In this document: positions 48,039 through 63,838 of the stretch, piece by piece
Numbering within the stretch: the first letter of the stretch is position 1
How the letters are laid out: each line of letters begins with the position of its first letter
Source of the DNA: Neocallimastix lanati (nom. inval.)
Taxonomy: Eukaryota > Neocallimastigomycota > Neocallimastigomycetes > Neocallimastigales > Neocallimastigaceae
DNA: 64,000 nt
Direction of reading: 5' to 3'
Assembly: GCA_016946835.1 (NCBI GenBank)
Contig: JACVTC010000010.1
Span: forward strand, 1,677,501 to 1,741,500
Translations under genes and position numbers: made by a program
Notes under the pieces: generated by a model
What the model was told of the DNA's origin: nothing
The model's database searches: none
What the model saw: only the letters and a program-made list of their open reading frames with translations

Positions 48039-49219
48039 TTAATTCTTCATTTTGAAATTAAATTGTTCATTTAGTAAATTAATGATATCTTGACTTCTTA
48101 TACTATTGTATAATTTTATTTTTTCATTTGCATTTTCTTTTTCTGAATTTGCATACTTTTCTAATAATTCATTAATTTCTTTATTATTTTTTTCTTTAGC
48201 TAAATCGAAAACAGTTTTTCCTTCATTATTGACCTTCTCTGAATCTATAGAGTTATTATTTTGTAATAAATATTTAATAACGGAAATTTGATTGTAATAG
48301 ACCGCAATATGTAGGGGTGTCATATATTTATATGTAGTCATATTAATATTTGCATAATTTTCAAGTAAAAGTTGAACAATTTTTTCATATCCATATTTGC
48401 AGGCAACATGTAATGGTGTCCATCCTTCTTCATTTTTATAATTTACATCCGCATTATTACTAATTAAAAGTTGAGCCATTGTAGTGTTACCATATTGACT
48501 TGATATATGTAATGATGTATTTTGTTCTTGATTAATTTCATTAACATAGGAATGACCTTCTTTTATTAAATATCTTCCAATCTGGTAATAATTATAACGA
48601 CTAGCGATATGTAATGCAGTCCATTCTTTAGAATCTTTAGCATCTACAGGAAGATGTCCCTTTTTTAATAAAAGTTTGACCATCCTTAAATTATTATTTT
48701 TAGTAGCTATGTGTAACAGTTTATATTCATTTTGAGTTCCTAAATTAATATCGGCTCCTCTTTCAAGTAATAATTCTACAATGTCATTATAATTATTTTG
48801 ACAGGCGAGTTCAATGGCACTCTTACCATTCATTGTTATATTAATATTAACTCCATTTTCAATTAATAATTGAACAATATCCAAATGACCAAATTGACAA
48901 GCAATATGGAGAGGGAACCATTCATCTTTGGTTTTTTCAGATAAACTGATACCTGAAGATATTAAGTGATTTAATTGTTTAATATTTCCATTTTTACAAG
49001 CAACATGAACTTCCTTCCATTTGTTATTATTATAATAATCCAATGATGATGAATAGAAAGATTCTTTTAATGAAACTGGTTTTTCTCTATAACAGATATA
49101 TGCACCAATAATTGTTTTTCCATCTTCAATTAACGAAGATCCGAAATTAGTTTTATTATTTGAAAATAAATATTCCTTTTTAACATGTAACTCACTATTA
49201 CTATTAATATTACTACAAA
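48039..49219 (-). other. terminal exon: end of MATH module 16 plus ankyrin repeats
   Basis: The exon starts after ACTATAG at 49220 and first completes a MATH module (FGSSLIEDGKTIIGAYICYR). It then passes through a short linker into ankyrin repeats beginning KWKEVHVACKNGNIKQLNHL. Repeats follow at about 33-residue spacing with FPLHIACQFGHLDIVQLLIE, LLHIATKNNNLRMVKLLLKK, TALHIASRYNYYQIGRYLIK, TSLHISSQYGNTTMAQLLIS, TPLHVACKYGYEKIVQLLLE and TPLHIAVYYNQISVIKYLLQ. A Lys/Asn/Glu-rich tail ends FNFKMKN. Confidence 0.9.

Positions 49220-63838: not shown

What the first reader, a model, noticed from the sequence alone, without database searches (positions are those of the whole stretch)
48039..63838. 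A giant gene of at least 16 tandem MATH modules ending in ankyrin repeats
Sequence shows 48 in-frame exons coding sixteen copies of a MATH-like unit and then eight or nine ankyrin repeats. MATH domains normally occur once or a few times per protein, next to RING, BTB or protease domains. A long MATH array fused to ankyrins resembles a multivalent peptide-binding scaffold and is, as far as I know, not a described architecture in fungi.
Basis: partly seen in the sequence, partly recalled or inferred. Interest (0 to 1): 0.88.

Follow-up and report, generated by a model that had tools for sequence, protein, structure and literature searches.

The report
Giant sixteen-MATH-domain ankyrin protein, gut fungus
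An anaerobic gut fungus carries one split gene for a giant protein that strings together sixteen copies of a peptide-binding domain (MATH, as in the ubiquitin-ligase receptor SPOP) and nine ankyrin repeats; a matching spliced sequence exists, and related genes in the same genome appear to join the same kind of domain string to a ubiquitin-ligase domain, so this looks like a so far undescribed family of multi-grip adaptors.

Summary
On the minus strand one 49-exon gene (64074 to 48039; a 13-nt first exon lies just outside the window) encodes 2864 aa: 16 three-exon MATH modules with strict intron phases, then nine ankyrin repeats, no internal stop. A 2436-aa database protein from a 7399-nt contig matches gaplessly with 22 substitutions, covering 39 of 48 splice junctions, so this is not a row of short genes. 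Profiles and a two-module model give the SPOP/USP7 MATH fold.

It is not alone. Parts of the genome that I read hold further MATH arrays of 12, 10, 5, 5, 5, 5 and 4 modules. One is collinear with a 12-module Anaeromyces robustus protein; two are followed by SH3 and HECT ubiquitin-ligase exons with the catalytic-cysteine context intact. A second locus has a MATH exon beside similar ankyrins.

Best reading: a soluble multivalent adaptor whose MATH domains grip short client motifs while the ankyrins dock a partner, probably in ubiquitin-type client handling. Architecture is established; function is inferred.

The parts
63057..63838 (-). MATH module 1 (exons 63838-63691, 63505-63348, 63215-63057); preceded by the predicted 13-nt start exon at 64074-64062, outside the window
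   Evidence: exon chain and open frame; the first 9 of 48 splice junctions are not covered by the spliced homologue
62188..62895 (-). MATH module 2 (62895-62754, 62637-62489, 62349-62188)
   Evidence: clade of modules 2-5, UFBoot 100
61181..61898 (-). MATH module 3 (61898-61748, 61637-61480, 61339-61181)
   Evidence: homologue P0002 begins inside its third exon
60280..61082 (-). MATH module 4 (61082-60941, 60830-60673, 60438-60280)
   Evidence: junctions matched by P0002
59322..60113 (-). MATH module 5 (60113-59960, 59841-59684, 59480-59322)
   Evidence: PF22486 1e-07
58408..59141 (-). MATH module 6 (59141-58994, 58815-58655, 58563-58408); keeps the W-G-W/F cleft signature
   Evidence: PDB SPOP MATH E 2.4e-10; cleft columns
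57615..58310 (-). MATH module 7 (58310-58163, 58053-57893, 57776-57615)
   Evidence: PF22486 2.4e-13
56724..57518 (-). MATH module 8 (57518-57365, 57247-57096, 56888-56724)
55835..56606 (-). MATH module 9 (56606-56459, 56301-56141, 55996-55835)
54931..55715 (-). MATH module 10 (55715-55565, 55361-55189, 55095-54931)
   Evidence: a substitution in P0002 within one residue of one junction
54019..54786 (-). MATH module 11 (54786-54636, 54474-54317, 54189-54019)
53043..53867 (-). MATH module 12 (53867-53720, 53518-53349, 53207-53043)
   Evidence: a substitution in P0002 within one residue of one junction; PF22486 7e-15; modelled with module 13
52117..52890 (-). MATH module 13 (52890-52743, 52630-52470, 52281-52117)
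   Evidence: modelled
51127..51983 (-). MATH module 14 (51983-51836, 51652-51480, 51291-51127)
   Evidence: PF22486 5.4e-12
50183..50952 (-). MATH module 15 (50952-50802, 50628-50462, 50329-50183)
49079..50094 (-). MATH module 16, degenerate in its third part (50094-49935, 49527-49358, then about the first 140 nt of the last exon); the end is approximate
   Evidence: modelled at lower confidence
48150..49022 (-). nine ankyrin repeats, within the last exon 49219-48039 (limits approximate)
   Evidence: Ank_2 188 bits; nine helix pairs; 49% identical stretch at C56
48039..48149 (-). C-terminal helical extension and stop codon TAA (48041-48039)

Best explanation
A single, spliced nuclear gene of an anaerobic gut fungus makes a soluble 2864-residue protein: a string of sixteen SPOP/USP7-type MATH domains, each led by a short helix, ending in nine ankyrin repeats. 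Shown: gene structure, MATH and ankyrin identity, an intron-free near-identical homologue, no membrane segment or signal-like N-terminus by hydropathy, and relatives with the same module in other arrays. Inferred: each MATH domain offers a shallow groove for a short linear motif; the string therefore binds many motif-bearing clients, or one multi-motif client many times, and the ankyrin end docks the whole assembly to a fixed partner. Because the nearest solved MATH domains are substrate or client readers of the ubiquitin system, and because two sister arrays in the same genome are followed by SH3 and HECT ligase exons, the most likely use is collecting clients for ubiquitin-type control, with this ankyrin form acting as a ligase-free adaptor or competitor. 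Modules are old and individually different, so I expect a set of partly different binding sites rather than sixteen copies of one site.
Against: No binding, expression-level or localisation data. The gene itself has no ligase, BTB, RING or protease domain at E 0.01. The W-G-W/F cleft signature is complete only in module 6; the third position is aromatic in 9 of 16 modules, so some modules may not bind peptides in the SPOP way; and the cleft loop is no better conserved than the rest between collinear modules (36% against 50% for whole modules). Six of 16 modules fall short of E 0.01 for PF22486 alone. This array itself has no demonstrated collinear orthologue in another genus: window modules against Anaeromyces give only 2 reciprocal best hits of 16. 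The SH3-to-HECT join was found in frame in C212 only; in C117 no single-intron join was found. The C56 MATH-to-ankyrin join was not modelled, and the stretch upstream of it is partly N. That P0002 is a transcript is my inference from its length; its record was not labelled so.
Confidence: 0.55

Rival explanations
1. Multivalent scaffold for signalling or the cytoskeleton with no ubiquitin link: MATH domains cluster receptors or adaptors as TRAFs do, and ankyrins tether them.
Against: The best-ranked MATH folds are SPOP and USP7, and two sister arrays adjoin HECT ligase exons.
Confidence: 0.25
2. Intracellular recognition array: diversified modules that sense foreign or damaged proteins, in the manner of expanded fungal or plant recognition repeats.
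For: Several arrays with different module numbers and ends; modules strongly diverged; ankyrin families are reported as expanded in this phylum (PMC8778642, passages).
Against: Module order and identity are conserved between genera in the 12-module array, the opposite of fast-changing recognition repeats; no death or NTPase domain in the Pfam scan.
Confidence: 0.1
3. Non-functional or drifting duplicate array, or a row of separate short genes.
For: Tandem duplications inside the array are evident (modules 2-5, UFBoot 100); module 16 is degenerate.
Against: No stop in 8595 nt and all 48 introns GT-AG; an intron-free homologue reads through 39 junctions to the same stop.
Confidence: 0.03
4. Extracellular scaffoldin of the fungal cellulosome (giant repeat protein in a dockerin-rich genome).
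For: Genome has at least 150 dockerin matches; giant modular build.
Against: No hydrophobic N-terminus or membrane segment by hydropathy; modules are MATH, with SPOP/USP7 fold.
Confidence: 0.02

Closest known systems
SPOP (MATH-BTB substrate receptor of Cul3 ligases)
   Different: SPOP has one MATH and a BTB domain (recalled; entries titled BTB-Cul3); here sixteen MATH, no BTB, nine ankyrins
USP7/HAUSP TRAF-like domain
   Same: MATH fold, top Foldseek rows
   Different: one MATH joined to a deubiquitinase (recalled); none here
Plant multi-MATH proteins (two to four MATH domains)
   Same: tandem MATH in one protein; PMC4923191 passages report at most four, in one Arabidopsis protein; the PMC10218331 table has columns up to four (passages)
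   Different: sixteen, in a fungus, with ankyrins; PMC10218331 suggests that multi-MATH proteins are specific to land plants (passage)
Anaeromyces robustus hypothetical protein BCR32DRAFT_295511 (P0003)
   Same: 12 modules of the same kind by my exon profiles, 11 Pfam MATH_2 stretches; 33% identity
   Different: no ankyrins in the Pfam scan; it is the collinear counterpart of the C39 array, not of this gene
JGI 'ankyrin repeat protein' P0002
   Same: 99% identical, 2436 residues, same C-terminus
   Different: starts within module 3; probably the same or a sister species (inference)
Planarian Burro giant retroelements
   Same: MATH_TRAF_C and ankyrins in one giant ORF (PMC6431247 passage)
   Different: retroelement polyprotein; here a 48-intron gene

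Membership tests
MATH / TRAF-like domain | profile match to a MATH family | tested here: met
   PF22486 351 bits for the protein; 10 of 16 modules singly at E<=0.01
MATH / TRAF-like domain | eight-strand MATH sandwich | tested here: met
MATH / TRAF-like domain | peptide-binding cleft residues | tested here: inconclusive
   W-G-W/F complete in module 6 only; F133-equivalent aromatic in 9 of 16 (SPOP residue numbers recalled)
SPOP-type MATH-BTB receptors | BTB domain | tested here: not met
   no BTB in the Pfam scan
USP7-type MATH deubiquitinases | ubiquitin hydrolase domain | tested here: not met
   none in the Pfam scan
TRAF proteins | RING and zinc fingers before one MATH | tested here: not met
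   no RING or zinc finger in the Pfam scan; the trimerising coiled coil was not tested
Ankyrin repeat proteins | tandem ankyrin repeats | tested here: met
   Ank_2 188 bits, nine helix pairs
HECT ubiquitin ligases (this gene) | HECT domain | tested here: not met
   none in the Pfam scan; HECT is at sister loci only
HECT ubiquitin ligases (C117 and C212 sister loci) | HECT domain with catalytic Cys | tested here: met
   PF00632 76-78 bits and 41-44 bits on separate exons; Cys codon across a GT-AG junction in both; one continuous mRNA from MATH to HECT not shown
Cellulosome scaffoldins | secretion signal | tested here: not met
   hydropathy only
SPOP-like substrate receptor (works like) | binds short linear motifs | not testable with these tools
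   needs a binding assay

The most novel reading that the evidence does not exclude
Anaerobic gut fungi evolved their own client-recognition system out of tandem MATH domains: fixed, ordered arrays of different motif readers, conserved module by module between genera, that are plugged either into a ligase (MATH5-SH3-HECT) or into an ankyrin dock (MATH16-ANK9), so that one protein reads a combination of motifs instead of a single degron.
Probability: 0.35. Interest if true: 0.85.

Novelty: new variant of a known kind. Interest (0 to 1): 0.64.

Why it matters
MATH domains are known mostly as single readers, with at most four per protein in the plant surveys whose passages I read. A sixteen-MATH string, an array family with fixed module order across genera, and MATH arrays next to HECT exons would make multivalent motif reading by one ubiquitin-type adaptor directly testable, and could add a new substrate-reading end to HECT ligases. 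It also offers a testable function for a family that databases list only as hypothetical or ankyrin repeat protein.

Tried and rejected
Separate short genes: rejected. More modules upstream or downstream: exon profiles found none at i-E<0.1 in 30 kb upstream and 2 kb downstream. Scaffoldin or membrane protein: no signal-like or membrane stretch by hydropathy. Orthologue of this very array in Anaeromyces: not found in P0003, which pairs with C39; no Anaeromyces genome was searched. PDB by sequence was weak or misleading for some modules: module 12 first hit OspA chains, with USP7 at 0.04 and SPOP at 0.2; module 7 hit no MATH chain at E 1; the 16-module profile hit none at 0.01; a P0003 module hit USP7 at 0.01; module 6 hit SPOP clearly. 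Search of the genome with PF00917 gave nothing, and its control rang nowhere either. Protein-database searches with one module and with the module profile gave only an 88-aa fragment; candidates there were limited to 0.55-1.75 times the query length, so longer arrays could not appear. The tree used 65 modules: it was made before most of C35 (2 of 10 modules used), C146 (0 of 5) and the fifth C212 module (4 of 5 used) were read, and uses 2 complete modules of C223 and none of C610. In C39 the third module lacks a detected c exon. Module-16-ankyrin model: pTM 0.56, so their relative placement is not interpreted. Gene models of the other arrays were not built; they are orders of exon matches, and modules beyond the stretches read cannot be excluded for C35 and C56.

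Full report
What was checked. The window is part of contig C2 of a 199-Mb, 762-contig genome with GC 16.9% in the window.

Gene model. Open frames on the minus strand and splice-site enumeration give one chain of 49 exons from an ATG at 64074 (flank locus L001) to a TAA ending at 48039. The coding sequence is 8595 nt, 2864 aa, without internal stop; 48 of 48 introns are GT-AG, 88 to 407 nt, median 142.5, and poorer in GC (7.5%) than the coding parts (22.5%). Exons come in threes (a, b, c) with phases 2, 1, 1 after them, so the repeated unit is a three-exon cassette with phase-1 introns at both ends, the symmetrical form that can be duplicated without breaking the frame.

One mRNA. A whole-protein search returned P0002, 2436 aa from a single 7399-nt contig, named 'ankyrin repeat protein'. 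It aligns to model residues 429-2864 without a gap, with 22 substitutions, and spans 39 of the 48 junctions, two of which have a substitution within one residue. A 7.4-kb contig with a 2436-residue frame has no room for these introns, so I infer a transcript; the record was not labelled as one. The nine 5' junctions stay predicted.

A family of arrays. A module query gives 112 matches in the genome at E<=0.01, the window's own exons included (150 of 212 candidates scored), and an Anaeromyces module 147 (150 of 246 scored); both are lower bounds. Reading part of these loci (not all) shows the same a-b-c order in arrays of 12 modules on C39 (third module without a detected c exon), 10 on C35, 5 on C117, C212, C742 and C146, 4 on C56 plus strand, partial arrays on C223 and C610, and single modules in the pieces read on C135, C48 and C112. 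These are orders of exon matches, not full gene models. What comes next in line differs: ankyrins on C2; a MATH c exon followed by ankyrins 49% identical to ours on C56 minus strand; SH3 on C117 and C212; a serine-rich open frame on C39 and a serine-, glutamine- and proline-rich one on C742.

Sister ligases. Downstream of the SH3 exon, C212 and C117 carry exons that match HECT (PF00632; 76-78 bits for the N-lobe exon, 41-44 bits for a C-lobe exon). In both, the codon of the cysteine before FNRIDLPPY is completed across a GT-AG junction. Last MATH to SH3 splices in frame in both; SH3 to HECT does so in C212, but I found no single-intron join in C117. That this cysteine is the catalytic one rests on established knowledge of the HECT family.

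Evolution. In a tree of 65 modules, the Anaeromyces protein P0003 and array C39 pair position by position: pairs 1, 2, 3, 4, 9, 10, 11 and 12 are sisters with UFBoot 100, 96, 89, 94, 99, 100, 99 and 100, while 5-8 fall in mixed groups. By simple score 7 of 12 best hits are on the diagonal, and the diagonal sum exceeds all of 100000 permutations. C117 and C212 pair 1-4 at 100 each. In the window array, modules 2-5 form one clade (100) and 8, 9, 11 another (89), so it grew in part by internal duplication, long ago: modules share 26-53% identity. The loop that carries the SPOP W-G-F signature is complete in module 6 only; its third position is aromatic in 9 of 16 (SPOP numbering recalled). Position 10 of both Anaeromyces and C39 keeps W-G-aromatic and position 12 keeps L-G-F, but over the same-position pairs the loop is 36% identical against 23% for different positions, while whole modules are 50% against 38% (pairs without aligned loop letters drop out of the loop figure); the loop is thus not more conserved than the rest, which neither supports nor refutes conserved ligands.

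How it probably works. Shown: a gene for a giant protein of sixteen MATH modules and nine ankyrins without membrane segments. Inferred from the families: MATH grooves bind short linear motifs; sixteen in a row give avidity or a combination of motifs; ankyrins hold a partner. Inferred from the sister loci and from SPOP/USP7: the setting is client handling in the ubiquitin system. The step from sister ligases to this ligase-free gene is the weakest.

Literature. Plant surveys report up to four MATH domains in one protein (PMC4923191 and PMC10218331, passages). A survey of early-diverging fungi reports expanded ankyrin families in Neocallimastigomycota and has no occurrence of the word MATH in its main text (PMC8778642, passages). 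MATH-BTB gene clusters are reported in a dinoflagellate (PMC8110479, passages) and MATH with ankyrins in a planarian retroelement (PMC6431247, passages). Ten paper searches listed no description of MATH arrays in these fungi or of MATH-HECT proteins; some searches listed only the top 10 or 20 of 23 to 2894 papers, and most subscription papers are outside that library.

Noticed in passing
G000 C212:527646-536470 and C117:77495-86530 (minus strand), loci L050, L048, L020, L046, L051, L044, L034, L045: Five MATH modules, an SH3 exon and HECT ubiquitin-ligase exons in a row in two paralogous loci, with the cysteine context intact; if one gene, a MATH-SH3-HECT ligase is an architecture that my paper searches did not list.
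   Followed up: partly
G000 C39:418498-429300 (minus strand), loci L040-L041: Twelve-module MATH array collinear with a 12-module protein of Anaeromyces robustus.
   Followed up: yes
window 49641-49905: About 265 bp of TTA repeat inside the longest intron (49528-49934) of the gene (sequence).
   Followed up: no
window 30263-31789, 37947-39452 (minus strand) and the flank at L002/L003: Class-C receptor-like 7tm_3 open frames near the gene: 53.5 bits (over cut-off) and 32.2 bits (just under 33.5); flank frames look alike but were not scanned.
   Followed up: partly
window 25395-26552 (minus strand): Pectate lyase with a fungal cellulose-binding domain.
   Followed up: no
window 46099-46428: Exact tandem duplication of 165 bp.
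   Followed up: no
G000 C20:135025-135405 and C47:155459-155839: Single MATH matches in one open frame each, 85 bits, over the PF22486 cut-off, unlike the split array modules.
   Followed up: no
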